DNA of 64,000 nucleotides, from the NCBI RefSeq assembly GCF_003725695.1, contig NZ_RJSE01000001.1, positions 124,001-188,000 on the forward strand, written 5' to 3'. Position 1 is the first letter of the stretch; the number at the start of each line of letters is the position of its first letter. Below, piece by piece: positions 35,954-63,960 of this stretch. The notes under the pieces are model-generated. The model saw only the letters and a program-made list of their open reading frames with translations, was not told the origin of the DNA and made no database searches. Source of the DNA: Nocardioides marmoriginsengisoli (GTDB lineage Bacteria; Actinomycetota; Actinomycetes; Propionibacteriales; Nocardioidaceae). Made by a program: the position numbers and the translations under genes.

Positions 35954-36652
35954 GTGGCCATCCAGGTAGTCATCCTCGCCGCCGGTCTGGGCACCCGCCT
36001 CGGCAAGCCGCACCCCAAGCCGCTCACGCCGCTGACCTCCGGCGAGAGCATCATGCGCCGAGCCGTGAACTCGCTGCGGGACGCGTACGGCGAGGAAGTC
36101 TTCGTGACCGCGGTCGTCGGCTTCAAGCTCGACCTGGTGATCGAGGCGATGCCGGACATCTCCTTCGTCTACAACGAGGTCTACGACTCCACCAACACCT
36201 CCAAGAGCCTGCTCAAGGCGCTCCGGCTCAGCCAGCCCGGGGGCGTCCTGTGGCTCAACGGCGACGTCGTCTTCGACCCGCGGGTCCTCGGCCTGATCCA
36301 CGAGAAGATCGAGGCCGGGCACTCCTTCGTCGCGGTGAACACCGAGTCGGTCGCTGAGGAGGAGGTCAAGTACACCCTCGACGCGGACGGCTACATCGCC
36401 GAGCTCTCCAAGACCGTCGTCGGCGGCCTCGGCGAGGCGGTCGGCATCAACTACATCTCGGCGGACCAGAAGGCGGCGCTGATCGCGCGGCTGGAGGAGG
36501 CCGGCGAGCAGGACTACTTCGAGCGCGGTCTGGAGCTGGCGATCGAGAAGGACGGCATCCGGATCGAGGCCGTCGACATCTCCCAGTACCAGGTGGTCGA
36601 GGTCGACTTCGACGACGACCTCACCCGCGCCAACGCCTTCGTTCAGGGCTGA
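35954..36652 (+). CDS. LicC-like nucleotidyltransferase (probable CTP:phosphocholine or related cytidylyltransferase)
   Basis: 232 aa. The nucleotide-binding loop VVILAAGLGTRLGKPHPKPL starts the protein, followed by YNEVYDSTNTSKSLLKAL, which resembles the N-x-x-Y-x-x-T/N-N-x-x-S-L substrate-binding stretch of LicC and phospho-amino-alcohol cytidylyltransferases, and WLNGDVVFDPRVL (metal Asp). It should activate a phospho-alcohol as a CDP ester. GTG 35954 has AAGGGAGGG upstream. It lies 7 bp before the LicD-like fusion gene, its likely partner. Confidence 0.75.
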   Translation: MAIQVVILAAGLGTRLGKPHPKPLTPLTSGESIMRRAVNSLRDAYGEEVFVTAVVGFKLDLVIEAMPDISFVYNEVYDSTNTSKSLLKALRLSQPGGVLWLNGDVVFDPRVLGLIHEKIEAGHSFVAVNTESVAEEEVKYTLDADGYIAELSKTVVGGLGEAVGINYISADQKAALIARLEEAGEQDYFERGLELAIEKDGIRIEAVDISQYQVVEVDFDDDLTRANAFVQG

Positions 36653-36659
36653 GACGCCG

Positions 36660-38234
36660 TTGTCCGCCGTGGCGCCCAAGGTCGAGGCGATCCGGGTCGA
36701 CGACCGCGGGATCACCTTTCGGGCGACCGAGGACGACGTCGTCGACGTCCGCCTCGACGGCCGCCGGGTGTGGTCGTTCTGGTTGCAGCGCGATAGCGTG
36801 CCCGAGGCCGGCGGCCGGTACGTCGCTTGGCCGAACGCGCTGCGCCGCTTCCTGGACGGCGTCACCCGGCTGAGCCTGGTCGCGCACGTCACCGAGACCA
36901 CGCTCTTCGACGAGGAGCTCACCTTCGGCACCGGCGGCGACCGGATCGCGGTGGTCAACGAGAAGGGCCAGCCGCTCGGCCTCGACAAGACCAACAAGCT
37001 GATGCTGACCTTCGACACCCGCAGCGCCGAGCACGTCGCGCCGCTGCTGGACTCCCTCGAGGAGGTCCTCGGGGTCATCAAGGAAGCCGGGATCGAGGCG
37101 TTCCCGGCGTACGGGACCCTGCTCGGCGCGGTCCGCGCCGGCAAGCTGATCGGCCACGACAGCGACGCCGACCTCGGCTACGTCAGCAAGCACAGCCACC
37201 CGGTGGACGTGATCCGGGAGTCGTTCCAGGTCCAGCGCCGGATCACCGAGCGCGGCTACGACACCTACCGCTACTCCGGGATCGCGTTCCGGATCGACGT
37301 GCTCGAGGGCGACGGCTCCAAGCGCGGCCTGGACGTCTTCGGCGGCTTCATCGCGGCCCCGTACGGCGACAACCCGGCGATGCTGTACCTGATGGGCGAG
37401 GTGGGCGCGCCGTTCGAGCTGGAGTGGATCTACCCGCTCGGAACCACCGTCCTCGAAGGGCGCACGCTGCCGGCGCCGGCCCGGCCGGAGAAGCTGCTCG
37501 AGGCGATGTACGGCCCGGGCTGGAAGGTGCCCGACCCGGCGTACCACTTCACCACGCCGCGGACGACGTACCGGCGCCTGAACGGCTGGTTCCGCGGCAT
37601 CCGGGTGCTGCGCAACGAGTGGGAGCGCCGGTTCAGCACCACCCGGAACAAGCTGCCCGAGGACGGCCCGAGCGCGCTGGCCCAGCTGCTGGTCGAGCGC
37701 GAGGGGATGCCCGAGCTGCTGGTCGACCTCGGCGCCGGTCGCGGCGGGGACAGCCTCTGGTTCGCCCGGCAGGGTGCCCGGGTGCGGGCGCTGGACTTCG
37801 TCAAGCAGGCCTCGCTGGCGGTGCAGAAGGTCGCCGGGGACGAGCAGCTCGACCTGGTCGTCAAGGACGTCAACCTGAACTCGCTGCGGAGCTGGATGAG
37901 CGAGGCCATCCGACTGGCGCACACGCCCGGGCCCAAGGTGATCCTGGCCCGGAACCTGATCGACGCCCAGTCCGAGGTGTCGCGCGAGGCGACCTGGCGG
38001 CTCTGCGAGCTGGCGCTGCGCGACGGCGGCCGGCTCTACCTGGAGTTCCTGCGCGGGCAGCGTCGTGAGCGCACCGAGAAGGCGCTGCTCACCCCGCTTC
38101 CGGTGGCGGAGATCGTCGCGGAGCTGGAGCGGCACGGAGCCGTTATCGTTCATCAGGAGAACACCCACGAGGTGAAGCCGTCCGGAGCTCCCGGCCGGCC
38201 GTTGGCACGATTGGTGGCGGAGTGGCAAAGGTGA
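36660..38234 (+). CDS. LicD-like phosphotransferase fused to a SAM methyltransferase (copy 1)
   Basis: 524 aa. An N-terminal beta-rich domain (1-120) shared with the paralogue at 41182 is followed by a LicD/fukutin-type nucleotidyltransferase-fold domain with AYGTLLGAVRAGKLIGHDSDADL (150-172) and GLDVFGGF, then a class I methyltransferase domain (about 350-524) with LVDLGAGRGGDSLWFARQG. LicD enzymes transfer phosphocholine from CDP-choline to glycans. The fusion suggests transfer and methylation of a surface group. TTG start at 36660 (GTG 36669 possible). Confidence 0.75.
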   Translation: MSAVAPKVEAIRVDDRGITFRATEDDVVDVRLDGRRVWSFWLQRDSVPEAGGRYVAWPNALRRFLDGVTRLSLVAHVTETTLFDEELTFGTGGDRIAVVNEKGQPLGLDKTNKLMLTFDTRSAEHVAPLLDSLEEVLGVIKEAGIEAFPAYGTLLGAVRAGKLIGHDSDADLGYVSKHSHPVDVIRESFQVQRRITERGYDTYRYSGIAFRIDVLEGDGSKRGLDVFGGFIAAPYGDNPAMLYLMGEVGAPFELEWIYPLGTTVLEGRTLPAPARPEKLLEAMYGPGWKVPDPAYHFTTPRTTYRRLNGWFRGIRVLRNEWERRFSTTRNKLPEDGPSALAQLLVEREGMPELLVDLGAGRGGDSLWFARQGARVRALDFVKQASLAVQKVAGDEQLDLVVKDVNLNSLRSWMSEAIRLAHTPGPKVILARNLIDAQSEVSREATWRLCELALRDGGRLYLEFLRGQRRERTEKALLTPLPVAEIVAELERHGAVIVHQENTHEVKPSGAPGRPLARLVAEWQR

Positions 38235-38476
38235 CCGACAAGACAGGCCTGCGGAAGCGGGTGGCCCGCAAGGTCGCGAACGCGGCCGGCGGCGGCATCG
38301 TCGACGAGCTGTTCCAGCGGATCACCGAGCTCGAGGCCGAAGTCCAGGAGAACCGCAACCTCAACGTCCGGGTGGGCGAGCTCGTCGACCTGGTCTCCGA
38401 GCTGATGGCGCCGGTGGCCTCGCAGGACCCGGCCCGGATCGAGGCGGCGCTGGCGAAGTTCGAGCGCTCGCTCTGA
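38222..38476 (+). CDS. Small coiled-coil protein (copy 1)
   Basis: 84 aa. A basic N-terminus (LRKRVARKVANAA) leads to a heptad-like helix (DELFQRITELEAEVQENRNL) and an acidic end. It overlaps the LicD-methyltransferase gene by 13 bp. A related 73-aa protein follows the second LicD-methyltransferase gene, with the shared pattern ELxxxVxENRxLNxRxxxxxDxxxELxxPxxxxDxxRxxAAL. It may tether or oligomerise the enzyme. Function unknown. Confidence 0.75.
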   Translation: MAKVTDKTGLRKRVARKVANAAGGGIVDELFQRITELEAEVQENRNLNVRVGELVDLVSELMAPVASQDPARIEAALAKFERSL

Positions 38477-38490
38477 CTGAGGCCTGAGCC

Positions 38491-39639
38491 ATGGCTGCGA
38501 AGGTCTTCCTGCACCTCGGGTTGCCGAAGACGGCGACCACCTACCTCCAGACGCTGATGTGGGCCGATCGCGACCTGATGCGCTCCCAGGGGGTGCTGCT
38601 CCCCGGGCGCGAGCGTCGTGACCACCTCTGGTCGTCGCGGATCGTGCGCGAGGACCCGAACCTCGCCGGGTACGACGAGCGCCGGCGGACGGCGTGGGAC
38701 CGGCTTCGCGCCGAGATCGCCGCCTGGGACGGCAATGCCGTGATCAGCCACGAGTTCTTCGCCGGCGCCTCCGCCGAGCAGGCGGTCGCGATGATCGACG
38801 CGCTCGCCCCGGCCGAGGTGCACCTCGTGGTGACGGCCCGGGAGCCGGTCGGGCTCTTCGCCAGCAGCTGGCAGGAGAGCCTGAAGAACCGCGAGACGGC
38901 GACGATGGCGGAGTACGCGACCGCACCCGTCTCGGAGAGCTCGCAGGCGATCTGGAACTGGCGCACCCTCGACGTCCGGCTGGTCCTGGAGCGGTGGGCA
39001 CCGGCGCTGCCGCCGGCGCAGGTGCACGTGCTGCCGCTGCCCGGGGCGGAGTCGCCGCGATCGCTGATCTGGGAGCGGTTCGCCGCGCTGATCGGGCTCG
39101 ACCCGGCCGCGTTCGACCTGTCGGCGAGCTTCCCGAACGAGTCGATGGGCGTCGTCGAGGCCGAGACGCTGCGCCGGATCAACCTGCACCTGCAGGACGA
39201 CGACTTCGACAAGCCGTTCGACAAGGGCGTCTACATCCGGACCTTCCTGGCCGACCAGCGGCTGGTGCCGCGCGGCGGCGACCGGTTCTGGCCGGACCCG
39301 GACGCGATCGCCGACTGCCGGGCGCGCGGCGAGGCGGCGGTGGCGCACATCCGGGAGGCCGGGTACGACGTGGTCGGCGACCTGGAGAGCCTGCGGGTCC
39401 CCGCCGAGCTGCCGGAGCGCCGTACCGTCGGCACGGTGACCGAGGCCGAGGTGGCCGCGACGGCGACCGCCCTCGCCGGCCGGATGCTGCACGACGTCCG
39501 GGACCTGACCAAGGAGCGGAACCGGCTCCAGCGGCAGCTGGCCAAGGCTCAGGCCGAGCCGCCGCTGCGGGCTGCGCTGGTGCACCGCTGGCCGTGGCTG
39601 GGCCGGGTGCTGTCCCGCTCGGACACGCCCTCGCCGTGA
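38491..39639 (+). CDS. PAPS-dependent sulfotransferase-like protein
   Basis: 382 aa. The 5'-phosphosulfate loop LHLGLPKTATTYLQ (about residues 6-19) and the 3'-phosphate motif VVTAREPVGLFASSWQ (about 110-125) are those of PAPS sulfotransferases; His91 in ISHEFF may be the base. The C-terminus has a coiled-coil stretch (TKERNRLQRQLAKAQAE), recalling the small proteins nearby. Co-directional with the LicC/LicD genes; a surface glycan is the likely acceptor. Confidence 0.78.
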   Translation: MAAKVFLHLGLPKTATTYLQTLMWADRDLMRSQGVLLPGRERRDHLWSSRIVREDPNLAGYDERRRTAWDRLRAEIAAWDGNAVISHEFFAGASAEQAVAMIDALAPAEVHLVVTAREPVGLFASSWQESLKNRETATMAEYATAPVSESSQAIWNWRTLDVRLVLERWAPALPPAQVHVLPLPGAESPRSLIWERFAALIGLDPAAFDLSASFPNESMGVVEAETLRRINLHLQDDDFDKPFDKGVYIRTFLADQRLVPRGGDRFWPDPDAIADCRARGEAAVAHIREAGYDVVGDLESLRVPAELPERRTVGTVTEAEVAATATALAGRMLHDVRDLTKERNRLQRQLAKAQAEPPLRAALVHRWPWLGRVLSRSDTPSP

Positions 39640-39683
39640 CCTGTGTCATGGTCGGCGAGGCTCCACACACCGGTACCGACGGG

Positions 39684-39711
39684 TAATATCGGGCGGTGCC
39701 TGCGCGGCACC
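39684..39711 (+). promoter_or_regulatory. -10-like TAATAT and GGTGCC/GGCACC hairpin before the acyl-CoA dehydrogenase
   Basis: TAATAT (39684-39689) is an AT-rich -10 candidate. GGTGCC (39695-39700) pairs with GGCACC (39706-39711) in the leader. The ribosome site GGAAGGA is at about 39721-39727. Confidence 0.45.
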
Positions 39712-39738
39712 AACCGTCACCGGAAGGACGTCATCACC

Positions 39739-40938
<1,200 letters not shown>

Positions 40939-40947
40939 CCTTGACGG

Positions 40948-40982
40948 GCAGCGCGTCACCGACCTAGTCGGTGGCGCGCTGC
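40948..40982. terminator. Bidirectional terminator overlapping the coiled-coil gene stop
   Basis: GCAGCGCGTCACCGAC (40948-40963) pairs with GTCGGTGGCGCGCTGC (40967-40982) over 16 bp with a single mismatch (T-G) and a 3-nt loop. The minus-strand gene at 40964 reads into this stem for its last codons. Confidence 0.75.
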
Positions 40983-41185
40983 TTGCCTTTTCCGAGCGCG
41001 TCCAGCGCCGCCTTCAGCCGTTCGTCGTCGCGGTCGACCGCCGGCACCAGCAGCTCGGTCATCACGTCGAGGACGTCGGAGAGGCGCTCGTTGAGGCGGC
41101 GGTTCTCCTCGACCGCCCCCATCAGCTCGGTGACCCGCGCCTCCAGCTTGGCGATCCGGTTGTCCCTGCTCAGCGGGTTCTTCAC
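40964..41185 (-). CDS. Small coiled-coil protein (copy 2)
   Basis: 73 aa from GTG 41185, starting MKNPLSRDNRIAKLEARVTEL and ending GKGKQRATD. Its GTG overlaps the stop of the second LicD-methyltransferase gene (41182-41185). The helix pattern and the motif VEENRRLNERLSDVLDVMTELLVPAVDRDDERL match the 84-aa protein at 38222. It is a probable accessory subunit of the enzyme. Confidence 0.75.
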   Translation of the reverse strand: MKNPLSRDNRIAKLEARVTELMGAVEENRRLNERLSDVLDVMTELLVPAVDRDDERLKAALDALGKGKQRATD

Positions 41186-42750
41186 CGACCCACTCCTTCC
41201 TTGGTCCAGCTCACGACGAGACGACAGATGACCGGGTTCTCCTTGCCGAGCGGCGCCAGGCCGCGACCGGTCGTCTGCTCGACGACCCGGCCCCCGTGCC
41301 GCTCGATCTCGGCGACGATCGCCGCCGGACGGGCGAAGGTGCGGGCGTGCTTGCCGAAGTGCTTGCGCGCGCCCCGCTCGGCGTCGGTGCGGAACTCCAG
41401 GAAGGTCAGCCCGCCGCGGCGCCCGGCGATCGCGCAGAACCGCCACAGGCCGATCCGGCCGGAGGGTGCCAGCGCGTCGATCAGGCCGCGCGCGTAGATG
41501 TGCCGGGGGTGCGGGTCGTGGGCGAACTTGGTGGCGGTGGTCAGCACCGAGTGCAGCGACTCCGGGTTGATCGGTCGGTACCGGATTTTCAGGCCGGCCT
41601 TCGCGGTGGCCTGCTTGGCCGCCGTCCGGGCGGAGCCGCAGTAGTCCGACCCGACGGTCCCGTGACCCTCCTGGGTGAACCAGATCGCGTCCCGGCCGGT
41701 GCCGGAGCCGAGCTCGATGATCCGGTCCTTCGGCTCCATCCGCTCGGCGGCCCAGCGGGCGAACAGCGACGGCTCGGAGGGGACCTCGCGGTGGGGGCCC
41801 TTGTAGAACTCCTGCCAGTGCGGCAGCCGGCTCCGGGTGCCGCGGAACCAGTGCGACATCCGGCGTACGTTCGCCGGCGGGTGGCCGAAGTGGAAGGCCG
41901 GGTCGGGGACCTTCCAGCCGGGTCCGTAGGTGAACTCGAGGAAGCGGGGTACGTCGGCCGGGGCCGGGAAGCTGACGCCTTCGAGGTCGATCTCGCCGAA
42001 CGGCAGGATCGCGTCCCGGTCCAGCGTCCCGGTCAGCGAGCCGGTGATGTTGAAGGTGTCGCCGATGTGGAAGGACCCGAAGACGTCGACGCCGGCGCGC
42101 TTGCCGCTGGGCAGCGGCACCCAGATCTTGAAGTTCGCCGAGGACATCCGGATCACCTGCCAGCCGAGCCGGGCCATCGTCTTCTCGGCCCTGCGGGACT
42201 CCTGGATGATGTCGAACGGGTGCGTGTAGGCGCTCAGGAAGGCCAGGTCGAGGTCCGAGTCGTGGCCGATCATCGCCCCGGACCGGGCCGCGCCGAGCAG
42301 GCCGCCGTAGCAGAGGTAGGCGTCCAGGCCGCACGCGTCGCGCAGGTCGACGAGGACCCGCTTCGCCGCCGAGATCAGCTCGGCCCGGGCGTCGCCGGCG
42401 TAGTCCTCGAAGGTGCGCTGGAGCCGGCCGCCCTTGTCCAGCGACAGCGGGTTGCCGAGGTCGTCGACCAGGACCAGCGGGTCGCCGGAGCGGCCGAACT
42501 TGACCGCACCCTCGAAGACGACGCTGCCGCCGTTGTGCGGGACCAGCTCGACCTGGGCGATCCCGTCGAGCCGGGACGCGATCGGCTTCGGCCAGGTGAC
42601 GAGGATCGCCGGACCGAGGCGGTGGCCGTCCCGTTCCGGGGTGAAGGACCAGATCCGGTGGCCGCCGAACTTCAGGTCGAGCGGGACGTCGGCGATGCCG
42701 TCGAGGGAGCCGGTCAGGCGGATGCCCCGGCTGTCGATGTGAACGCCCAC
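41182..42750 (-). CDS. LicD-like phosphotransferase fused to a SAM methyltransferase (copy 2)
   Basis: 522 aa, a diverged paralogue of the protein at 36660 with the same three parts: beta-rich N-terminus (1-115, HRIWSFTPERDG), LicD-type domain with CYGGLLGAARSGAMIGHDSDLDL (147-169), and methyltransferase domain with RIIELGSGTGRDAIWFTQEG (about 350 onward). The linking block GPGWKVPDPAFHF is nearly identical to that of copy 1. Substrate specificity may differ between copies. Co-translated with coiled-coil copy 2. Confidence 0.75.
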   Translation of the reverse strand: MGVHIDSRGIRLTGSLDGIADVPLDLKFGGHRIWSFTPERDGHRLGPAILVTWPKPIASRLDGIAQVELVPHNGGSVVFEGAVKFGRSGDPLVLVDDLGNPLSLDKGGRLQRTFEDYAGDARAELISAAKRVLVDLRDACGLDAYLCYGGLLGAARSGAMIGHDSDLDLAFLSAYTHPFDIIQESRRAEKTMARLGWQVIRMSSANFKIWVPLPSGKRAGVDVFGSFHIGDTFNITGSLTGTLDRDAILPFGEIDLEGVSFPAPADVPRFLEFTYGPGWKVPDPAFHFGHPPANVRRMSHWFRGTRSRLPHWQEFYKGPHREVPSEPSLFARWAAERMEPKDRIIELGSGTGRDAIWFTQEGHGTVGSDYCGSARTAAKQATAKAGLKIRYRPINPESLHSVLTTATKFAHDPHPRHIYARGLIDALAPSGRIGLWRFCAIAGRRGGLTFLEFRTDAERGARKHFGKHARTFARPAAIVAEIERHGGRVVEQTTGRGLAPLGKENPVICRLVVSWTKEGVGR

Positions 42751-42864: not shown

Positions 42865-43953
42865 TCAGCGCAGGGTGCGGTTGACCTTCGGCGCTTCGCC
42901 GAGGTTGAAGCCGTTGTCGAAAGCAGCGGCCTCGACGTGCAGCTTGCCCTTGCGCAGGCCCCTGATCGCCGGGGTCTGCCAGGCGCCGGCCGCGTTCACC
43001 CGCATGCTGGCCGGGCGGGCCTTGCTCTTGCGGAGGGTCTTGGTGAGGCCGGAGTAGCCCTTGAGCCACTTCCGCTTGTGGAAGTCGTAGGCGTACCAGA
43101 CGCCGCCGCGCTTCTGGACGACGAAGGCCATCGCGCCGCTGACTCCGGTCTCGGCATCGGTGGCGGTGCCCTTGATCCGGCGCCAGGAGGCGACCTTGGT
43201 CGGGTTGGCCGGGGTGGTGATCCGGACCCGGGGGTTCGTCACGTCGCGCTTCACCGTCAGCGCCGGCAGGTTGACGGTCGTGACGTTGCCGAACTGGTCG
43301 GTCAGGCGCACCTTCGGGGTGAAGGTGCCGGGCCGGTGGTACTTCAGCTTGTAGGTGGGCTTGGTCCAGGTGGTCGGGGGCGAGCCGTCGCCGGCCTGGA
43401 TGGTCCGGGTGATGGAACCGCCCGGGGTGTTGTCCGACAGGCTGGTCTGGGTGACGGTGAAGGCCGCCGCCTCGATCTCGTCGAAGCTCTGCGCGTCGAA
43501 GTCGATCGTCATGAAGGCCGACGTCCGGTTCACCGTGTAGGTGCCGGTCGGGCCGGTGCTGTCGAGGGTGATCGCGGTGAACGGCACGGACTCCACTGCG
43601 CCGAGGGTTTCGCCGCTCTTCGCGCGCACCGCGAGCCAGTACTCGCCACCGGAGACGAGGTCGGCGGTAGCGAGGTCGGCGGTAGCGGGGGCACCCGCGT
43701 TCGCGGCGAAGTCCTTGCTCTTGACGACGGAGGTGGCTGCCTCGTCGTCGGTGATGAGCACCTTGTAGGTGGTCGCCGTGTCGTTCGCGGTCCAGGATGC
43801 GTTGACAACCCACTCCTGGCCGACCTGGCTCTGCGAGACGGCCAGGTTGGTGACCGGATCGGTCGGGGCGGCCTGAGCCGGCGCGATCACCGTCAGGCTG
43901 ATCGCGGCGGTCGCAAAGGCGGCGACGGTCGCGGCGTACGGGCGGAACTTCAC
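42865..43953 (-). CDS. Secreted FN3/Ig-like domain protein
   Basis: 362 aa. Signal peptide (1-28, ending AQAAP), a fibronectin-III-like domain (about 33-125, WTANDTATTYKVLI... YWLAVRAKSG), then two bacterial Ig-like modules (DSTGPTGTYTVNRTSAF; TNPRVRITTPANPTKV) and a basic C-terminus. A 15-bp tandem duplication gives LATADLATADL. No enzyme motif; it is probably a surface or matrix protein. Confidence 0.8.
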   Translation of the reverse strand: MKFRPYAATVAAFATAAISLTVIAPAQAAPTDPVTNLAVSQSQVGQEWVVNASWTANDTATTYKVLITDDEAATSVVKSKDFAANAGAPATADLATADLVSGGEYWLAVRAKSGETLGAVESVPFTAITLDSTGPTGTYTVNRTSAFMTIDFDAQSFDEIEAAAFTVTQTSLSDNTPGGSITRTIQAGDGSPPTTWTKPTYKLKYHRPGTFTPKVRLTDQFGNVTTVNLPALTVKRDVTNPRVRITTPANPTKVASWRRIKGTATDAETGVSGAMAFVVQKRGGVWYAYDFHKRKWLKGYSGLTKTLRKSKARPASMRVNAAGAWQTPAIRGLRKGKLHVEAAAFDNGFNLGEAPKVNRTLR

Positions 43954-57874: not shown

Positions 57875-58261
57875 ATGAAGTTCGCCCTCGTCGCCGCTCT
57901 GCTCGTCCTAGGTGCTGGTTGCGGAGGAGGCGCGGCCAAGTCTGACGGCGGGAACAACGAGAACCCGGCATCGTCGTCGTCGTTGCGGGAGACCTGTCCG
58001 TTGATCGAGGCTGCGATTCCAGCGGACGTGATGGCCGAACCATCTGTATGGACCAAGGCCGGCGCCGAGCTGCGCGAGCTCTCGTCATCGGGGGATGCCG
58101 AGACGAAGAACGCGATCGACATCCTGCTCCCTGCGATTGACGCCCTGGCGGCTGATCCGGCGCCAGGGGCGGACGCCCTGGCGGCCTTCGATGGCCTTAC
58201 GACTGCGATCAGGACGATGGCGGACCGTTGTGAGGCTGTCGGTTCATCAGCGCTGCAGTAG
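57875..58261 (+). CDS. Putative lipoprotein
   Basis: 128 aa. MKFALVAALLVLGAGCGGG has a lipobox LGAGC with Cys16, then a Gly/Asn/Ser linker and a helical domain with two more Cys. It could be a phage-encoded surface or superinfection-exclusion lipoprotein, which are common at prophage edges, but this is inference from position. Confidence 0.75.
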   Translation: MKFALVAALLVLGAGCGGGAAKSDGGNNENPASSSSLRETCPLIEAAIPADVMAEPSVWTKAGAELRELSSSGDAETKNAIDILLPAIDALAADPAPGADALAAFDGLTTAIRTMADRCEAVGSSALQ

Positions 58262-58273
58262 GTCGTCGTGGAG

Positions 58274-58426
58274 CTAGTCGCGGCGTACGGAGAGTAGGTG
58301 CCAGCCGTCGGGGACGCTGGCCTTGGCTTCGCCGACGAGGGTGTCGTAGTCGTCGCCTTCGAGGGTCCAGTGGTGGGCTTCGGCGGTGGTGTCGGCCGCC
58401 GGGCGGGAGGCGAAGTGCAGGATCAC
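58274..58426 (-). CDS. Small hypothetical protein (50 aa or longer)
   Basis: On the minus strand GTG 58426 opens a frame with ILHFASRPAADTTAEAHHW, then LEGDDYDTLVGEAKASVPDG and WHLLSVRRD before TAG. The composition looks protein-like and the upstream codons (LDPAYPHL) also look coding, so the true start may lie in the preceding gene. Function unknown. Confidence 0.45.
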   Translation of the reverse strand: MILHFASRPAADTTAEAHHWTLEGDDYDTLVGEAKASVPDGWHLLSVRRD

Positions 58427-58451
58427 CAGGTGAGGGTACGCAGGATCGAGA

Positions 58452-59054
58452 TCAAGCCTGGTCGGTGGGAGGCTCGTCGCCAGGCGCGTCTGCGGGCTTG
58501 GGCTGGGGCACGACGTACTCGGTCAGAGGCGGCATCGACTCGGTCGGATGGTCCGCGGGGCCCCCGATGATCGGCTGAGGGGGCGGGCCGGCCATGTGGA
58601 ACTCGCTGACCCACTGCTTGTTGTGCTGGCCCTCGATCTCGAGCTTCCAGTGGTAGGTGACGCCTGGCTCGAGCTGGATGCCGTTCGGGAACTGCATCAC
58701 GACCTGGACCCTGCCACCGAAATCGGGAGGCAGGTAGACCCCGGTGAGTCCGTTGGGCGATGCGCTCACCATCTGCTGGACTCGTAGCGAGTCTTGCTGC
58801 CCTGTAGGACCGATCATCTTCACGATTTGGTCGTTGTCGCTGCGCCGTAGTTCCAGCGAGATCGGGAACTGCTGGCCGATGTGCTTGGCGGGAACGTCGA
58901 TCATTACGACGACGGTCTGAGGGGCGCTCAGCCCGTTGGGATTCATGCCGACGACACGGAATCCGATGCCGAGGGCGCCGACTTTGCCGTTGCCTTCATC
59001 TGATGCGTAGTCGGCGATGAAGATGACGGCTCGCGAGTCGGTGAAGATGCTCAT
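58452..59054 (-). CDS. Hypothetical protein of the phage-like region
   Basis: 200 aa. The first about 150 residues are beta-rich, Ig-like (FRVVGMNPNGLSAPQTVVVMIDVP; FPISLELRRSDNDQIV; TYHWKLEIEGQHNK), and the last 50 are Pro-rich and probably disordered. No signal peptide. It may bind a surface or partner protein. Function unknown. The start overlaps the next upstream gene by ATGA. Confidence 0.7.
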   Translation of the reverse strand: MSIFTDSRAVIFIADYASDEGNGKVGALGIGFRVVGMNPNGLSAPQTVVVMIDVPAKHIGQQFPISLELRRSDNDQIVKMIGPTGQQDSLRVQQMVSASPNGLTGVYLPPDFGGRVQVVMQFPNGIQLEPGVTYHWKLEIEGQHNKQWVSEFHMAGPPPQPIIGGPADHPTESMPPLTEYVVPQPKPADAPGDEPPTDQA

Positions 59055-59269
59055 GCGTGCTGGGGTACCCCGGAAGTGACCGAGACTGTGTGCTGGAGCG
59101 GAGCTCCGCCGACGCGGGTGATGGTGTGTGCGCCGAAGGTCATAGGCTGGGAGAGACGTCCTCCGGCCGGGATCGTGGGACCAGTCGTTTCGACGGGATC
59201 GAGTGCCTCGAAGCGAGCGAGGGTCTCTTCGCGCGAAAGGTTCTCGTCGTCTGTCCAGTCCTGGTCCAT
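59051..59269 (-). CDS. Small hypothetical protein
   Basis: 72 aa, acidic N-terminal helix (DDENLSREETLARFEALDP) then a beta-like part ending SGVPQHA. It is co-translated with the 200-aa protein downstream (ATGA overlap). Function unknown. Confidence 0.6.
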   Translation of the reverse strand: MDQDWTDDENLSREETLARFEALDPVETTGPTIPAGGRLSQPMTFGAHTITRVGGAPLQHTVSVTSGVPQHA

Positions 59270-59330
59270 GTCCCCATTATGAGCACACGTTGGTAGCCGG
59301 GTGTAGACAGATGACCAAACGCGCGCCAGT

Positions 59331-59615
59331 TCAGCGCACCCAGCGCGCGGTCAGCACGACCCAGGTATCGGCGGCTGTCCCGGCCCAAGTTGGTACTGGA
59401 AGGAGGGTGGCGAGCACCGTGTCACCACACGCTGCAGTGCCGATGGCTACAACCCGCCACCCGTGTTCAGGGTGGGTCTCTTCAGCGGTGCGGGCCTTGG
59501 CGGGCCACTGGATGGCTTCCCTGACCTGCTCGAGCGTGATTGTGTGCTTCTCGTGGAGCTTGGCAACGACCGAGGGGTCCGCGATCACCAGTCCTAGGTA
59601 GATCGCTGGCCCCAT
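59331..59615 (-). CDS. Hypothetical protein, possibly toxin-like
   Basis: 94 aa: IADPSVVAKLHEKHTITLEQVREAIQWPAKART then EHGWRVVAIGTAACGDTVLATLLPVP and WVVLTARWVR. The order of helices and strands is reminiscent of BrnT/RelE-type mRNA-interferase toxins, but no antitoxin gene is adjacent and the key residues cannot be assigned. Its ATG overlaps, on the other strand, the rejected upstream start of the next gene. Confidence 0.6.
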   Translation of the reverse strand: MGPAIYLGLVIADPSVVAKLHEKHTITLEQVREAIQWPAKARTAEETHPEHGWRVVAIGTAACGDTVLATLLPVPTWAGTAADTWVVLTARWVR

Positions 59616-59647
59616 GGCGGCATCCTTCCATGACCGCGAGCCGTTTC

Positions 59648-59667
59648 TCGAACATCTGTTCTATCGT
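59648..59667 (+). promoter_or_regulatory. LexA (SOS) box overlapping a leaderless promoter
   Basis: TCGAACATCTGTTCTA (59648-59663) fits the actinobacterial LexA site CGAAC-N4-GTTC. TATCGT (59662-59667) is a -10 box 6 nt before ATG 59674. LexA binding would therefore block RNA polymerase. Confidence 0.65.
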
Positions 59668-59673
59668 GCGTTG

Positions 59674-59928
59674 ATGAAGACCCGGCACGTGTGGATGCTG
59701 CCGCCGCTCGATGTCGGGCTGCCGCGGCAGGGTCTGGTGCTGACCTGGCGGCGCCGGGTGGTGAACGCCTCGCCGCCAATGTGGGAGGCGTACGTGCTTT
59801 GGATCGACGAGCGCCGCGAGGAAGCCCGGGTCGAGTGGGTGCCGGCGTCGTACCTGCAGCCGGTCGAGTCGGAGGCCCCGTTGGCTGGACGTCAGCGTGG
59901 ACATCAAGGTGGTCCAGGAACGGGGTAG
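59674..59928 (+). CDS. SOS-controlled small protein
   Basis: 84 aa from the leaderless ATG 59674: MKTRHVWMLPPLDVGLPRQG, then LVLTWRRRVVNASPPMWEAY, VLWIDERREEARVEWVPASYL and a Gly/Gln-rich tail. A small beta-barrel fold is plausible. Short proteins with this kind of start are found near SOS mutagenesis genes in actinobacteria, but none of those genes is present here. Function unknown. Confidence 0.65.
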   Translation: MKTRHVWMLPPLDVGLPRQGLVLTWRRRVVNASPPMWEAYVLWIDERREEARVEWVPASYLQPVESEAPLAGRQRGHQGGPGTG

Positions 59929-60009
59929 ATAGCGCGTTCTTGCAGGTCAGGGCCGTACGTCGAGGGGACACTATCCGGGACATTCGGGGGCGCCCGAGCA
60001 CGACGAAAC

Positions 60010-60041
60010 GCCCCGCCGCTCTCCGAAGAGAGCGACGGGGC
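60010..60041. terminator. Hairpin between convergent genes
   Basis: A 14-bp stem with one mismatch and loop CGAA (60010-60023 with 60028-60041; GCCCCG and CGCTCTC blocks), between the SOS gene and the leftward tail operon. Confidence 0.7.
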
Positions 60042-60060
60042 AGCGTCGTACAGCGGCAGG

Positions 60061-60273
60061 CTAGGTGCGTGGTCGGCAGATGTGGACCCAGTAGCCGGCG
60101 GCCAGGGCGGCGAGCGCGACCGCGAGGACCTGGTCGCCGTACGGGATCTGGTCCTTCACCGATCGGGTGATCTCGCTGATCGTGTCGCCGTCAGCGTCAC
60201 CCCGGTTGCGGAGCAGGTTCCGGGCCCCGAGGTGGACGACGTCGAGGACGAGCTCGAGCGGCGGGGACTGCAT
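60061..60273 (-). CDS. Small phage membrane protein
   Basis: 70 aa from ATG 60273, overlapping the stop of the DUF6527-like gene. Basic and acidic N-terminal half, then one TM helix (VLAVALAALAAGYWVHIC) and a basic end. Its place at the end of the tail operon fits a lysis-related or anchoring protein, such as a holin-like product. Not proven. Confidence 0.65.
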   Translation of the reverse strand: MQSPPLELVLDVVHLGARNLLRNRGDADGDTISEITRSVKDQIPYGDQVLAVALAALAAGYWVHICRPRT

Positions 60274-60623
60274 CAGTCCTCCCGCCACGGCGGCAGGTCG
60301 ACGGTCTGGCCAGCGAGGCCGTGGGTGCAGTCGCCGAGGAACTCGATCCGGCCGCCGCGGACGAACGAGTGACACAGCGGCGTCATCGTGATGTTCTCCG
60401 GGGCGGTCAGCGCGTCACCGTCCAGGTCGCCGTTCACAAACGTCCGATGCGGGTGCACGAGCACGGACGGCTCGAACGTGGGCCGCTGCAGGTCACCGTT
60501 CCAGGTCCAGCTGTTCGGGGCATCGACGGTCACGCCGTGGACGGTGCCGCAGCCCGGGCATCGGAAGTGGACCCGGCGGCCGGGCGCGGTGCCGTTGGTG
60601 GCCGTCTTGGCGACGTCGACCAC
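60273..60623 (-). CDS. Phage DUF6527-type metal-binding protein
   Basis: 116 aa. RRVHFRCPGCGTVHGVTV, PTFEPSVLVH and LCHSFVRGGRIEFLGDCTHGLAGQTVDLP (Cys/His residues for a metal) match a small family encoded in phage tail/lysis regions and often misnamed ammonia monooxygenase. Function unknown. Confidence 0.8.
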   Translation of the reverse strand: MVDVAKTATNGTAPGRRVHFRCPGCGTVHGVTVDAPNSWTWNGDLQRPTFEPSVLVHPHRTFVNGDLDGDALTAPENITMTPLCHSFVRGGRIEFLGDCTHGLAGQTVDLPPWRED

Positions 60624-60626
60624 GGA

Positions 60627-60890
60627 TCAGTCCTGGAGCAGTGCCGGGTCGACGGGCTCGGGCCGGTTCCGGGCGGCGAGCAGGTCGGAGTCGAGCTTCC
60701 TCGTCGGGATGACCTTCCTCCGGGCGGTCTCGGCGCCGAAGATGATGAGCGCCGCGGCGCCGGCGAAGCGGACGTCGACCAGGTCGATCAGGCCGCGCTC
60801 GTGGAGGTACCCGGCGACCAGCACGGTCAGGCCGTAGATCCGGACCCGGATCGGCTCGTTGCGGAGGGCGTTCAGGATGGTCTTCAGCAT
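60627..60890 (-). CDS. Small phage membrane protein, possible holin
   Basis: 87 aa with two moderately hydrophobic segments (VRIYGLTVLVAGYLHERGL and VRFAGAAALIIFGAETA) and a charged tail. Size, topology and position between fibre genes and the end of the operon suit a holin or tail-end protein. Confidence 0.6.
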   Translation of the reverse strand: MLKTILNALRNEPIRVRIYGLTVLVAGYLHERGLIDLVDVRFAGAAALIIFGAETARRKVIPTRKLDSDLLAARNRPEPVDPALLQD

Positions 60891-60900
60891 GGGTGGCTCC

Positions 60901-61212
60901 TCAGTGCTCGATGATGTCGAAGTGCAGGGTCTGGTCCTCGCCGCGGCCTTGGGCGGTGGTGATCCGGTTGACGACCTCGTAGGACTGGCCGAGGGTGCCG
61001 CCGGAGAGCCAGATCGTGGCGGTGGTGTCGGTGTTGGCTTCGTCGGTCTTGGTCAGGCCGGCCGGGACGATCCACTCCGAGGTCGCGATGGTGTCGCCGT
61101 CCTTTAGCCACGGGCCCTTCGGCCCGGTCCCGGCCCAGTTCGCGAGGTAGTCGAGCTTGGAGTCCGGGTCCTTGGTGAAGTAGTTGTCGTCCTCCGGGCT
61201 GCAGGTACTCAC
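60901..61212 (-). CDS. Phage structural protein (head/tail fibre accessory)
   Basis: 103 aa. The stretch ATIWLSGGTLGQSYEVVNRITTAQGRGEDQTLHFDI is a beta-sandwich segment common to phage baseplate or fibre-associated proteins. It overlaps the fibre gene by 4 bp (61209-61212) and starts 1 codon after the fibre stop. Confidence 0.7.
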   Translation of the reverse strand: MSTCSPEDDNYFTKDPDSKLDYLANWAGTGPKGPWLKDGDTIATSEWIVPAGLTKTDEANTDTTATIWLSGGTLGQSYEVVNRITTAQGRGEDQTLHFDIIEH

Positions 61213-63080
61213 TGGACCTCCACGGTTCGGTTCTCGGCGGGCACGTTGTAGGTCCGGGGACGGGCGAGGACCTGGACGGTTCGGTTCTCGGCGGGCACGT
61301 TGTAGGTGCGCTCTGGGGGTGTCGGTGCTGCGGGGACGAGCACGACGCCGTTGGCGATGAGGGAGCTGGTCCCGGCGAGCAGGAGCGGGCCGCTGGCCAG
61401 GACGCTGGCCGCGGTGGCGAGGAGGGTGCCGAGTCCGGCGAGGGTGAGGTTGGCGGGGATCTCGGCCTTGGTGCTGGCGCTGAGGGTCCCGTGACCGGCG
61501 AGCACGACGGCCGCGAGCTCCTGTACGAGCCCGGAGACTGTCAGCGAGCTGGTGCCCGAGATGATGACGGCCGCGGGCCGTACGAGCGCGCCGCCGACCG
61601 CGAGGGTGCTGGTGCCGGTGAAGGTTGCCGGGGCGGACACGGATCCGGCCGAGTCGGTCGCCAGGGTGCTTTCCCCGGCGAGCACGATCGCGGCAGGGAT
61701 GCTCTGGTGACCGGCGACGGTGAGGCTGCTGGTTCCGGCGAGCACGACCGAGGCGGGCACCTCAGCGCGCGCGGTCGCCATGAGGGAACTGGTGCTGGCC
61801 AGCGCCACCGCGGCAGGGACGTCGACGCGCACCACGGCGGCCAGGGTGCTGGCCCCGGCCAGGATGAGAGCGCCGGTGATCGTCTGCTGTCCGGACGCCG
61901 CCAGAGACCCAGTTCCTACGAGCACGACCGAGGCGGGGACCTGCTGGGTGCTTCCCGCCGCCAGGGTGCTCGTGCCTGAGATCGCGATGGCCGCGGGGAT
62001 GTCCTGGCGGCCGGCCGCGGTCAGGGCGCTGGTGCTGGCGAGTACGACCGTGGCGGGGATGCTCTGGCGTGCAGCTGCGGCGAGCGAGCTCGTACCCGCC
62101 AGGGTGACGGCGGCGGGACGCTGGACGACCGGGGCCACCGCGAGCGAGCTCGTGCCCGCCAGGGTGGCGGCGGCGACTGCTGCGCTGCTCGCCGAGGCGG
62201 CCAGGGTGCCCGTGCCAGCGATCATGACATCGCCAGGCACGTCCTGGCGGCCGGTCACCGTCAGAGCGCTGGTGCCGGCGATCGTGACAGCAGACGCGGT
62301 GTCCTGACGCCCGCTCGCAGTGAGCGTGCTCGTCCCGGCGAACGCAACCGTGCCGGGGACGTCCTGTCGGCCAGCTGCGGCGAGGGTGCTGGTCCCGGCC
62401 ATCGTGACGGCGGCGGGGATGCTCTGCTGCCCGTTGGCCGCCAGGGTGCTGGTGCCTGCCAGCGTCGCAGCGGCGGTGACCGGCGCAGGAGGGTTGATCG
62501 AAGCCAGCAGGCCGGCCGTGACCGAGATCGTGGTCCAGGTCCACGTCCGGGTGCCGGTTGCTCCCGGTGTCGCGGTCTCGTGCGCGCCGGCGAACGACTG
62601 GGTGGAGTTGTCCTGGAAGTCCTGCGACATCGAGCCCGGCGGAGTCACCACGCCCGCCGACCCGACGCGGTAGAGGAGCGAGAGGAGGTAGGTGCCGGTG
62701 GCCACGGTGAGACCGGGGATCGCGTTGGAGGTCGCAGAGGCACCCTGCTGGAACGACGCGGCATCCCACGGTGAGATCGGGTCGGCGCCGGTGACGCAGT
62801 CGATCGCCGCGCGCAGGTTCGCCGTGCCGGAGGTGACCGAGAACGTGAACGACGACCCCTCGGACCCGTCCGCGATCCGGTAGAGGTACGCCGCCTGTGA
62901 ACCCGCCGAGGTCCCGGGGACCAGCGCCCACCCCGCGGGGATGTTCCAGGTCTTCGCGACGTTCGCCGACAGCGCGGCGATGAGCAGATCGCCGACAGCG
63001 GTACCGGTCGGCTTGTTGACCGTGACCGAGGTGACGATGTTGGCGGTGCCGACGGTCGGAGTCCGGTGCGCGATCGCCAC
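61209..63080 (-). CDS. Phage tail fibre/adhesin with nineteen 20-residue repeats
   Basis: 623 aa. Residues 1-200 form a beta-sandwich-like head (TVNKPTGTAVGDLLIAALSAN). Residues 201-580 are nineteen units of exactly 20 aa with consensus (I/V)PAAVxLAGTSxLAAxGRQD. The end has a duplicated RTYNVPAENRTV block. The regular T-S-x-L and V-P spacing suggests a beta-solenoid or stacked fibre shaft. Host-surface binding is likely. Confidence 0.85.
   Translation of the reverse strand: MAIAHRTPTVGTANIVTSVTVNKPTGTAVGDLLIAALSANVAKTWNIPAGWALVPGTSAGSQAAYLYRIADGSEGSSFTFSVTSGTANLRAAIDCVTGADPISPWDAASFQQGASATSNAIPGLTVATGTYLLSLLYRVGSAGVVTPPGSMSQDFQDNSTQSFAGAHETATPGATGTRTWTWTTISVTAGLLASINPPAPVTAAATLAGTSTLAANGQQSIPAAVTMAGTSTLAAAGRQDVPGTVAFAGTSTLTASGRQDTASAVTIAGTSALTVTGRQDVPGDVMIAGTGTLAASASSAAVAAATLAGTSSLAVAPVVQRPAAVTLAGTSSLAAAARQSIPATVVLASTSALTAAGRQDIPAAIAISGTSTLAAGSTQQVPASVVLVGTGSLAASGQQTITGALILAGASTLAAVVRVDVPAAVALASTSSLMATARAEVPASVVLAGTSSLTVAGHQSIPAAIVLAGESTLATDSAGSVSAPATFTGTSTLAVGGALVRPAAVIISGTSSLTVSGLVQELAAVVLAGHGTLSASTKAEIPANLTLAGLGTLLATAASVLASGPLLLAGTSSLIANGVVLVPAAPTPPERTYNVPAENRTVQVLARPRTYNVPAENRTVEVQ
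61341..62480 (-). repeat. Coding array of 19 degenerate 60-bp repeats
   Basis: Each 60-bp unit encodes one 20-residue repeat of the fibre. Units differ mostly at synonymous sites and at the last four codons, so expansion is old or under selection. No unit is broken. Confidence 0.85.
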
Positions 63081-63083
63081 GAG

Positions 63084-63155
63084 TCACCCCTCCACAGTGT
63101 CGACGGTCAGGTACCAGCGCAGGGCCCCGACCCGGGGCCCCGCGCGGTGGTGCAA
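63084..63155 (-). CDS. Possible 23-residue phage peptide
   Basis: TTG 63155 opens MHHRAGPRVGALRWYLTVDTVEG and stops 3 bp before the fibre GTG start. GAGG lies about 9 nt upstream. The spacing between two structural genes and the protein-like end suggest a small gene; a non-coding gap is equally possible. Confidence 0.35.
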   Translation of the reverse strand: MHHRAGPRVGALRWYLTVDTVEG

Positions 63156-63161
63156 CTGGTG

Positions 63162-63584
63162 CTACGCCTCGGTGCCGGTCAGCGACCCGGACGGGATCAT
63201 CGCGGTGTCGCCGGCGTTGACGGTCTTCGCGAGGTTCGTCCCGCCTCGGAACGTCATGTTCTTCGGGGTGCCGGTGGAGTCGGCGACGAACACGTCGTTC
63301 CAGGTGCACGCCGGCATGTTCGAGAACGTGATCGCCGCGTTGCTGGACTTCGACCCGGCCGAGGCCGCGGCCATCGACCCGGCGATCGACTGCCGGGCGT
63401 AGGACCCACCGGCGACCTCGGTGCCGGCCGCGCTGGCCGTGCACAGGGTCGTCGTGAGGGCGACCTTCATCGGCAGGGTGTAGTTGACCCGCGCCGAGAC
63501 CGGGCCCAGGGCGAGGGTGCCCGACGCGCCGGTGTCGTAGACCGCGTCGAGGACGTCGTTGGCGAAGGCGGTGAACTTGGACAT
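63162..63584 (-). CDS. Phage structural (tail/fibre-type) protein
   Basis: 140 aa from ATG 63584. MSKFTAFANDVLDAVYDTGA, then SARVNYTLPMKVALTTTLCTASAAGTEV and the end GTNLAKTVNAGDTAMIPSGSL. This layout is shared by small tail or decoration proteins of actinophages. The Thr/Ala/Gly-rich beta character fits a capsid or tail surface. Confidence 0.75.
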   Translation of the reverse strand: MSKFTAFANDVLDAVYDTGASGTLALGPVSARVNYTLPMKVALTTTLCTASAAGTEVAGGSYARQSIAGSMAAASAGSKSSNAAITFSNMPACTWNDVFVADSTGTPKNMTFRGGTNLAKTVNAGDTAMIPSGSLTGTEA

Positions 63585-63585
63585 C

Positions 63586-63879
63586 TCAGTTCTCCTCGAG
63601 GTCGTTGTCGTTGGGCTGGGCCTGGATGAACTCGCGCAGCGCCTCACCGCGGATCCCGGAGTGGGCGGCCTCGACGGCCGCCGCGGCGACCGCGTTCTGC
63701 GGGCCGACGAGCTCGGCCGCGAGCTCGTCCGGAAGGCAGTCGTGGTGGAACGAAGGCTCCGCGATCGTGGTCCGCTCGTCCTTCTTCCAGTTGATGAAGC
63801 CGACGTGGATCATCGGATCCGTGTCGGTCTGGCCGCAGCCGTCGCACGTGAACGGCTCGGGCGTCGGGGTCTCGCTCAT
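63586..63879 (-). CDS. Phage-region zinc-ribbon protein
   Basis: 97 aa. CDGCGQTD early and HHDCLP later give a possible Cys3-His zinc site; the second half is helical (NAVAAAAVEAAHSGIRGEAL) and acidic. Its stop is 1 bp from the next gene start. Function unknown. Confidence 0.7.
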   Translation of the reverse strand: MSETPTPEPFTCDGCGQTDTDPMIHVGFINWKKDERTTIAEPSFHHDCLPDELAAELVGPQNAVAAAAVEAAHSGIRGEALREFIQAQPNDNDLEEN

Positions 63880-63907
63880 CTGGATCTCCTTGCTTCGGGT
63901 ACGACGA

Positions 63908-63932: not shown

Positions 63933-63960
63933 GAAGAGGAATCGGTGGTGCGGGTGCGCG

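What the first reader, a model, noticed from the sequence alone, without database searches (positions are those of the whole stretch)
35954..42750. Candidate undescribed surface-decoration system: LicC-like enzyme, two LicD-methyltransferase fusions, sulfotransferase
Seen: a nucleotidyltransferase with LicC-like motifs is followed by a LicD-type domain fused to a SAM methyltransferase, a coiled-coil protein and a PAPS-sulfotransferase; a second LicD-methyltransferase/coiled-coil pair lies opposite. Known: LicC makes CDP-choline and LicD transfers phosphocholine to glycans. Inference: the cell makes a CDP-activated phospho-alcohol, transfers it to a surface glycan and methylates it in place or before transfer, for example phosphoethanolamine to phosphocholine. 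I know of no described system with LicD and methyltransferase in one chain.
Basis: partly seen in the sequence, partly recalled or inferred. Interest (0 to 1): 0.82.

Follow-up and report, generated by a model that had tools for sequence, protein, structure and literature searches.

The report
Methylating LicD module for surface glycans
Soil bacteria of the Nocardioides group carry two-in-one enzymes that look built to attach a phosphate-linked alcohol to a cell-surface sugar chain and then methylate it, nearly always beside the same small helper protein; the literature searches made here found no description of them.

Summary
The genes are real and at the stated places. Two paralogous ~520-aa proteins join a LicD/fukutin-type phosphotransferase domain (profile match to FKRP, E=8e-11) to a class I SAM methyltransferase. 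Key residues of both active sites are kept in 102-103 of 103 fusion genes compared. The constant partner is the small DUF6752 protein: next gene in 97 of 103, fused in three genomes, and in a class-wide sample all 23 genomes with DUF6752 also have a LicD-MT match. A sulfotransferase-like gene follows in 74 of 103, but that label rests on a motif only. The LicC-like enzyme is a nucleotidyltransferase closest to PntC among solved structures, yet not a dedicated partner: 20 of 85 LicD-MT genomes in the family sample have it, and five genomes have it with no LicD found. Elsewhere LicD-MT sits beside other candidate donor makers (IspD-SDR, phosphonate and PF01467 types) and inside galactan loci. 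Best reading: a cytoplasmic decoration or capping module for wall glycopolymers, using phospho-polyols or phosphonates more likely than phosphocholine, with methylation of the product inferred. New variant of a known kind; chemistry untested.

The parts
35954..36652 (+). LicC/PntC-class nucleotidyltransferase (NTP_transf_3); equivalents of PntC Arg15, Lys25 and Lys153 present (R15, K22, K153), PntC Glu104 replaced by Asn102
   Evidence: residue roles from PMC6697681 passages
36660..38234 (+). LicD-methyltransferase A (TTG start at 36660, or GTG at 36669): N-terminal ~105-aa domain of unknown kind (36681-36992), LicD/FKRP-like domain (36993-37601), class I methyltransferase (37602-38231)
38231..38476 (+). 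DUF6752 small partner A, overlaps the fusion stop by 4 nt
38491..39639 (+). sulfotransferase-like protein (PKTxTT motif only; no profile support)
   Evidence: its family is second gene after the fusion in 74 of 103
40964..41185 (-). DUF6752 small partner B
41182..42750 (-). LicD-methyltransferase B (37% identical to A): N domain 42430-42750, LicD 41836-42429, methyltransferase 41200-41835
39739..40938 (+). acyl-CoA dehydrogenase (named by eye, no profile run), conserved bystander between the two units. Listed as boundary, not as part of the system
42865..43953 (-). PKD-domain protein with a hydrophobic N-terminus upstream of copy B; membership doubtful (5 relatives in the loci compared)
   Evidence: PKD 26.6 bits, cut-off 23.5

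Best explanation
A cytoplasmic tailoring (possibly capping) module for a wall or surface glycopolymer. Step 1 (inferred from fold and residues): the LicD domain takes a CMP/CDP-activated phospho-alcohol or phosphonate and forms a phosphodiester to a glycan that is probably still lipid-linked inside the cell. Step 2 (inferred): the fused methyltransferase methylates the product, on the phosphoryl group, the new alcohol or the neighbouring sugar; the target is unknown. DUF6752 is a dedicated small subunit that probably holds the enzyme in an oligomer or recruits it to the polymer-making complex. The following sulfotransferase-like gene adds a further modification. The donor differs between genomes; in this genome the candidates are the product of the PntC/LicC-class enzyme at 35954 and CDP-ribitol from an IspD-SDR synthase-like gene elsewhere, rather than phosphocholine. 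Three old paralogues (A, B, C) suggest different acceptors or donors. Shown: domains, residues, partner linkage, distribution. Inferred: all chemistry and cellular location.
For: LicD profile to FKRP, E=8.4e-11. Of the four Asp that FKRP needs (PMC6965139, passages), the matching D169, D171 and D225 are kept in 103 of 103 fusions and D167 in 102. Methyltransferase motif: acidic 356 in 103, G358 in 103, G360 in 102, acidic 379 in 103 of 103. DUF6752: next gene on the same strand in 97 of 103; fused in G008, G020 and G237; 23 of 394 class genomes have DUF6752, all 23 among the 27 with a LicD-MT profile match (hypergeometric 2e-33, relatedness not corrected). LicD and MT occur as adjacent separate genes in G075 and G099. 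Candidate donor makers near LicD-MT: IspD+SDR proteins in G421 (4-nt overlap), G237, G111, G102; PEP mutase and phosphonopyruvate decarboxylase, both over NCBIfam cut-offs, in G026; a PF01467 cytidylyltransferase-like protein overlapping LicD-MT by 4 nt in G020. Polymer context: GlfT2, UDP-galactopyranose mutase and LCP profiles in G001, with the same gene set by BLAST in G007 and G018. No membrane segment in the window's two fusions or two small partners by a simple hydropathy scan.
Against: No biochemistry. No donor maker is constant: 45 of 85 LicD-MT genomes in the family sample have neither the PntC/LicC-like enzyme nor a full-length IspD-SDR protein, and IspD-SDR is if anything less common with LicD-MT (29 of 85 versus 34 of 64). 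Three of the four linked IspD-SDR proteins score higher against the plain MEP-pathway IspD model than against the ribitol-5-phosphate model, below both cut-offs. The G020 PF01467 protein scores higher against an RfaE-type adenylyltransferase model than against glycerol-3-phosphate cytidylyltransferase, below both cut-offs. The NTase profile also reaches sugar-1-phosphate nucleotidyltransferases and its best NCBIfam match is GlmU, far below cut-off, so even CTP use is not proved. I recognised no polymer synthesis or export gene near the module in the window (by eye). LicD relatives can also transfer mannosylphosphate in yeast (PMC4873967 passage), so the donor could be a common nucleotide sugar. 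The three galactan-linked LicD-MTs do not group together in the tree. The methyltransferase half is less conserved (mean column identity 40% versus 60% for LicD). My loci were picked by similarity to window proteins and are mostly Nocardioidaceae.
Confidence: 0.53

Rival explanations
1. Actinobacterial counterpart of the WbdD-type chain terminators: LicD-MT installs a methylated phospho-alcohol cap on the growing end of a wall glycan, stopping elongation, with DUF6752 setting geometry.
For: Same three elements (phosphoryl transfer, methyltransferase, coiled coil) as WbdD and Klebsiella O7 ORF6 (PMC3482155 and PMC11231755, passages). ABC-exporter-like genes (named by eye, no profile run) near LicD-MT in G001, G007, G018, G237. 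Constant DUF6752 partner.
Against: DUF6752 proteins were called at about 60 to 120 aa, short for a ruler; three full LicD-MT copies in this genome; no export gene recognised in the window locus; LicD unrelated to the kinases.
Confidence: 0.2
2. One reading: CDP-ethanolamine or CDP-choline made by the enzyme at 35954, LicD transfer, N-methylation to phosphocholine on a glycan.
For: NTase belongs to the LicC/PntC class and lies 7 nt upstream of copy A; the best NCBIfam match of the LicD half is a cholinephosphotransferase model, Mf1 (33.4 bits, far below its cut-off of 225); amine methyltransferases occur among the mixed PDB hits of the MT half.
Against: Amine-contacting acid replaced by Asn in 14 of 14; closest solved relative PntC; NTase absent from 65 of 85 LicD-MT genomes; no PF01633 match in G000, though 12 of 24 genus genomes have one.
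Confidence: 0.1
3. The LicD domain uses a common nucleotide sugar and transfers sugar-1-phosphate; the methyltransferase O-methylates that sugar. This would explain the missing constant donor maker.
For: 45 of 85 LicD-MT genomes lack both tested donor makers; LicD relatives transfer mannosylphosphate in yeast (PMC4873967 passage).
Against: In four genomes it lies near IspD-SDR proteins and in one next to a phosphonate set; best solved relative uses CDP-ribitol.
Confidence: 0.17

Closest known systems
Fukutin / FKRP with ISPD (CDP-ribitol, ribitol-phosphate transfer)
   Same: LicD-type nucleotidyltransferase domain; the four catalytic Asp positions kept; some relatives lie near an IspD-SDR protein
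   Different: The fused methyltransferase and DUF6752 are extra; FKRP's zinc-finger loop is said to be conserved only in FKRP orthologues (PMC6965139 passage); donor here unknown
Lic-1 pathway (LicA-LicD, phosphocholine)
   Same: LicD family member beside a LicC-class enzyme in the window
   Different: No choline kinase family match in the genome, amine-site acid changed, LicC-like gene not a constant partner, methyltransferase fused
PntC phosphonate tailoring
   Same: NTase closest to PntC; one relative locus (G026) carries PEP mutase beside LicD-MT
   Different: No PEP mutase match at E<=1e-30 in the window's genome; the word methyltransferase does not occur in the main text of PMC6697681
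WbdD and Klebsiella O7 ORF6 terminators
   Same: Phosphoryl transfer, methyl transfer and a coiled coil joined for a cell-surface glycan (passages)
   Different: Kinase instead of LicD; long coil in the same chain; Gram-negative O antigens

Membership tests
LicD family (PF04991) | Profile score above the curated cut-off | tested here: met
   33.0 and 24.7 bits versus 22.6; 20 of 20 members of A2 match at E<=0.01
LicD family (PF04991) | Catalytic Asp triad and second Asp as in FKRP | tested here: met
   102-103 of 103 at each of D167, D169, D171, D225
LicD family (PF04991) | Transfers a phospho-alcohol from a CDP conjugate | not testable with these tools
   needs enzyme assay
Lic-1 phosphocholine pathway | Choline kinase LicA | tested here: not met
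   no PF01633 match at E<=0.001 in G000; 12 of 24 genus genomes have one; 5 of 14 control genomes rang. LicA could lie outside this model
Lic-1 phosphocholine pathway | LicC-like enzyme as conserved partner | tested here: not met
   20 of 85 LicD-MT genomes; five with NTase and no LicD found
Lic-1 phosphocholine pathway | Choline permease LicB | not tested
   no search spent on it
LicC/PntC cytidylyltransferases (P0001) | GXG(T/S)RX4-8PK signature and the PntC Arg15, Lys25, Lys153 equivalents | tested here: met
   R15, K22, K153 invariant in 14 of 14
LicC/PntC cytidylyltransferases (P0001) | Acidic residue contacting the amine (Glu104 / Asp105) | tested here: not met
   Asn102 in 14 of 14; the second acid, Glu196 of PntC, is kept as E194
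LicC/PntC cytidylyltransferases (P0001) | Uses CTP | not testable with these tools
   profile also reaches sugar nucleotidyltransferases
Phosphonate (Pnt) tailoring | PEP mutase in the genome | tested here: not met
   none in G000 at E<=1e-30; 6 of 149 family genomes match, four of them over part of the query
WbdD-type chain terminators | Kinase plus methyltransferase plus coiled coil in one chain | tested here: not met
   LicD in place of kinase; DUF6752 a separate gene in most fusions compared
WbdD-type chain terminators | Cap on the non-reducing end that stops elongation | not testable with these tools
   needs polymer analysis of mutants
ISPD-FKRP ribitol-phosphate transfer | CDP-ribitol synthase present and linked | tested here: inconclusive
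   full-length IspD-SDR homologue in G000 at C2:419694-421049, not linked; linked in 4 other genomes, one of the four over the ribitol-5-phosphate model's cut-off; 9 of 24 genus genomes have one
DUF6752 | Profile score above cut-off | tested here: met
   80.5 and 57.9 bits versus 27
PAPS sulfotransferases (P0003) | Match to a sulfotransferase profile or structure | tested here: not met
   (12 members searched); only a motif remains

The most novel reading that the evidence does not exclude
LicD-MT plus DUF6752 is a previously undescribed class of Gram-positive glycan terminator: a donor-flexible enzyme that ends wall-polymer growth with a methylated phospho-polyol or phosphonate cap, convergent with WbdD, kept in several paralogues so that one cell caps several polymers differently.
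Probability: 0.2. Interest if true: 0.78.

Novelty: new variant of a known kind. Interest (0 to 1): 0.55.

Why it matters
It gives a testable entry point, spread through much of one bacterial family, to how Nocardioides and relatives modify their wall polymers; it assigns a likely partner to an orphan family (DUF6752); and it shows a LicD/fukutin-type transferase joined to a methyltransferase in one chain. If it caps polymers it would extend the terminator concept known from Gram-negative O antigens to actinobacterial walls; if it only decorates, it still predicts a methylated phospho-substituent that can be looked for directly by NMR.

Tried and rejected
Rejected: the LicC-like enzyme as dedicated partner. 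Rejected as general rule: CDP-ribitol synthase as universal donor maker; it is not enriched with LicD-MT. Rejected for this genome: phosphonate donor. Considered: the glycerol-1-phosphate dehydrogenase-like partner seen in G001, G007 and G018; no match in 7 other chosen genomes, a set without a positive control. The N-terminal domain gave no PDB profile hit with E below 0.49. Passages of a survey of phosphocholine genes (PMC10434233) treat LicD and N-methyltransferases as separate pathways; the words fused and fusion do not occur in it. Paper searches: 1 paper, listing only; 0; 15 of 82 listed; 0; 3 of 3; 10 of 80; 12 of 25. None of the listed titles or abstract starts names a LicD-methyltransferase fusion; they cover open-licence PubMed Central only and the lists were capped. 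Promoter and terminator scan uninformative.

Limits of the counts: one search took 20 regions, 18 chosen by me around match places in the genus plus G000:C14 and others, out of 48 match places in 24 genomes; one search kept the best 80 of 259 relatives. 115 fusion genes in these loci were reduced to 103 by dropping those with an identical 100-residue stretch. Gene calls are from my own GC-frame script, so starts are approximate, and many neighbour names are by eye. The class searches draw an even sample and score a limited number of candidates per genome (16, 3), so misses are possible; I treated the two 394-genome samples as the same draw. In one search the LicD family search missed two of nine genomes that do carry LicD-MT by other calls (G005, G237); the five NTase genomes without LicD are therefore supported also by the absence of a P0002 match. 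The tree (FastTree only, rooted on three distant members that I chose) used 112 sequences: 102 of the 103 fusion genes and 10 from later fetches.

Changed on checking: odds of the phosphocholine reading raised from 0.08 to 0.10 and of the best explanation lowered from 0.55 to 0.53, because amine methyltransferases do occur among the methyltransferase hits and the TagD-like label in G020 was weakened.
Full report
What is there. The window lies on contig 5 of a 4.46-Mb genome whose relatives in a named collection are mostly Nocardioides, Marmoricola and other Nocardioidaceae. On the + strand, with operon-like spacing, are a nucleotidyltransferase (35954-36652), a LicD-methyltransferase protein (36660-38234), a DUF6752 protein (38231-38476) and a sulfotransferase-like protein (38491-39639). 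After an acyl-CoA dehydrogenase gene (named by eye), a second LicD-methyltransferase (41182-42750) with its own DUF6752 protein (40964-41185) lies on the - strand. The two fusions are 37% identical. A third LicD-MT with DUF6752 lies near leuCD-like genes (by eye) on contig 14. The three DUF6752 matches found in the genome at E<=0.001 are thus all beside a LicD-MT.

Domains. The LicD half passes the Pfam cut-off in both copies. As a 20-sequence profile its only significant PDB match is fukutin-related protein, E=8.4e-11 over 154 positions. FKRP's Asp360, 362, 364 and 416 are reported as needed for activity (PMC6965139, passages); the aligned Asp are kept in 102 to 103 of 103 fusion genes. The methyltransferase half finds class I enzymes of mixed function: N-, O-, S- and halide methyltransferases, including phosphomethylethanolamine N-methyltransferase at E=1.8e-3, which does not settle the substrate. 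The SAM-motif residues are kept in 102 to 103 of 103 at four positions, 95 at G362 and 98 at D364. The first ~105 residues are conserved but match nothing solved. Mean column identity is 60% for LicD and 40% for the methyltransferase.

The constant partner. In 103 distinct fusion genes from 101 sources examined, the next gene on the same strand is DUF6752 in 97, and the one after is the sulfotransferase-like family in 74. Of the other six, two have DUF6752 two genes upstream (L044, L053), two have it fused (L045, L051), one has it on the opposite strand (L067) and one has none called (L047). In the class-wide sample 23 of 394 genomes have DUF6752 and 27 of 394 have a LicD-MT profile match; all 23 lie within the 27. 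The four exceptions are G075 and G099, where LicD and methyltransferase are adjacent separate genes, and G199 and G229, whose relatives match only from about residue 112 on. DUF6752 is fused to the end of LicD-MT in G008, G020 and G237. Free-standing methyltransferase relatives lie beside LicD-MT in G033, G077 and G251. The family profile of DUF6752 has a helical, coil-like period. I read DUF6752 as a subunit; its binding was not tested.

The LicC-like enzyme. A 14-sequence profile finds PntC over its full length (E=3.4e-7), and over parts an inositol-phosphate cytidylyltransferase (2.2e-5), sugar nucleotidyltransferases (from 4.4e-5) and LicC (5.6e-4). The signature and the Arg15, Lys25 and Lys153 equivalents are invariant, but the acid near the substrate amine (Glu104 in PntC, Asp105 in LicC; PMC6697681 passages) is Asn in 14 of 14. 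The enzyme is present in 25 of 149 family genomes against 85 with a full LicD-MT, 20 shared (Fisher p=0.014, relatedness not corrected). In the window's genus 19 of 24 have it. Five genomes have it with no LicD found by two searches; G036, G037 and G039 are incomplete or contaminated, and the family search missed two of nine known LicD-MT genomes. In G027, G036, G039 and G129, and in G020 (which has its LicD-MT elsewhere), the enzyme directly precedes the acyl-CoA dehydrogenase gene; in G037 other glycan genes lie between. The LicD-MT set therefore looks like a cassette placed between two older neighbours.

Other candidate donor makers. LicD-MT lies near IspD+SDR proteins in four genomes: overlapping by 4 nt in G421, convergent and 15 nt apart in G237, within about 6 kb in G111 and 1.2 kb in G102 (the G102 and G237 LicD-MTs are distant, 28-35% by BLAST). 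One of the four passes NCBI's ribitol-5-phosphate cytidylyltransferase cut-off (175 versus 166 bits); the other three score 147, 148 and 130 and score higher on the plain IspD model, below its cut-off too. G026 has PEP mutase and phosphonopyruvate decarboxylase (both over cut-off) and an iron alcohol dehydrogenase next to LicD-MT, DUF6752, the sulfotransferase-like gene and the NTase. G020 has a PF01467 protein overlapping a LicD-MT gene by 4 nt; it scores 71 bits on an RfaE-type adenylyltransferase model and 54 on glycerol-3-phosphate cytidylyltransferase, below both cut-offs. In G001 the unit lies among GlfT2, UDP-galactopyranose mutase and LCP genes, a dehydrogenase related to glycerol-1-phosphate dehydrogenase (262 bits, below the 413 cut-off) and ABC-exporter-like genes named by eye; G007 and G018 share this gene set by BLAST. 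No single donor maker is constant: 45 of 85 genomes have neither of the two I counted. The window's own genome has a full-length IspD-SDR homologue on contig 2, in a locus of large glycosyltransferase-like genes and a sulfotransferase-like gene (names by eye and BLAST), and no PEP mutase match at E<=1e-30.

Neighbours across the family. Phosphodiesterase-type proteins recur in the fetched loci: a PLD-like family (61 genes in 56 of 101 sources; hydrophobic N-terminus in 43 of 61), two endonuclease/exonuclease/phosphatase families (50 in 44, N-terminus hydrophobic in 44 of 50; 28 in 28, 14 of 28, the latter also with a type I phosphodiesterase domain), GT2-type transferases (17 in 15; 13 in 11) and an acyltransferase-SGNH family (10 in 10) (Pfam run on one representative each). 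I infer a variable surface-glycan island; these enzymes could trim phosphodiester substituents outside the cell, which is untested.

Paralogues. In a full-length FastTree of 112 sequences the copy-B and copy-C sets that I named are monophyletic (support 1.0 and 0.996), and the ten copy-A members fall in a clade of 27 (0.995). The three galactan-linked members do not group together. The single-domain trees agree for B (support 0.99 in both) and less well for A. So the copies look old and probably do different jobs.

Comparison. Joining phosphoryl transfer, methyl transfer and a coiled coil is the plan of the O-antigen terminators WbdD and Klebsiella O7 ORF6 (PMC3482155, PMC11231755; passages), but with a kinase in place of LicD and a long coil. 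Bacterial fusions of ISPD and LicD domains are mentioned in PMC4873967 (passage). A LicD protein acting as a polyol-phosphate polymerase is reported in PMC11666461 (passage). I found no report of LicD joined to a methyltransferase (searches, with the limits given under Tried and rejected).

Verdict. The strongest new facts are the LicD-MT/DUF6752 pairing and the spread through the family with varied candidate donor makers.

Noticed in passing
window 58000-64000: Lower GC (0.651 at 58-60 kb), a GC-skew shift and mostly short - strand genes suggest a prophage or other inserted element.
   Followed up: no
L141 8600-12161 (G026): A phosphonate set (PEP mutase with an N-terminal PF01467 cytidylyltransferase-like domain, phosphonopyruvate decarboxylase, Fe-alcohol dehydrogenase) beside LicD-MT: a candidate methylated phosphonoglycan locus.
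   Followed up: partly
L088 7916-9784 and relatives (28 genes in 28 loci): Large protein joining an endonuclease/exonuclease/phosphatase domain to a type I phosphodiesterase domain (Pfam on one member), in loci with LicD-MT; putative phosphodiester remodelling enzyme.
   Followed up: partly
window 38491-39639 and its cluster (154 genes in 87 loci): Sulfotransferase-like family with an HxGxPKTxTT motif; 12 members searched gave no significant sulfotransferase match in Pfam, NCBIfam or PDB sequences.
   Followed up: partly
window 36681-36992 and 42430-42750: Conserved ~105-residue N-terminal domain (WSF...WP...LxG motif) of the fusions with no PDB sequence match; may bind the glycan acceptor.
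   Followed up: partly
L196 6312-6965, L201 1681-2361, L188 3216-3803: Free-standing methyltransferases related to the fused one, next to LicD-MT and DUF6752 genes.
   Followed up: no
window 39739-40938: Acyl-CoA dehydrogenase gene (named by eye) conserved as the boundary of a hot spot where glycan-modification cassettes differ between genomes.
   Followed up: partly
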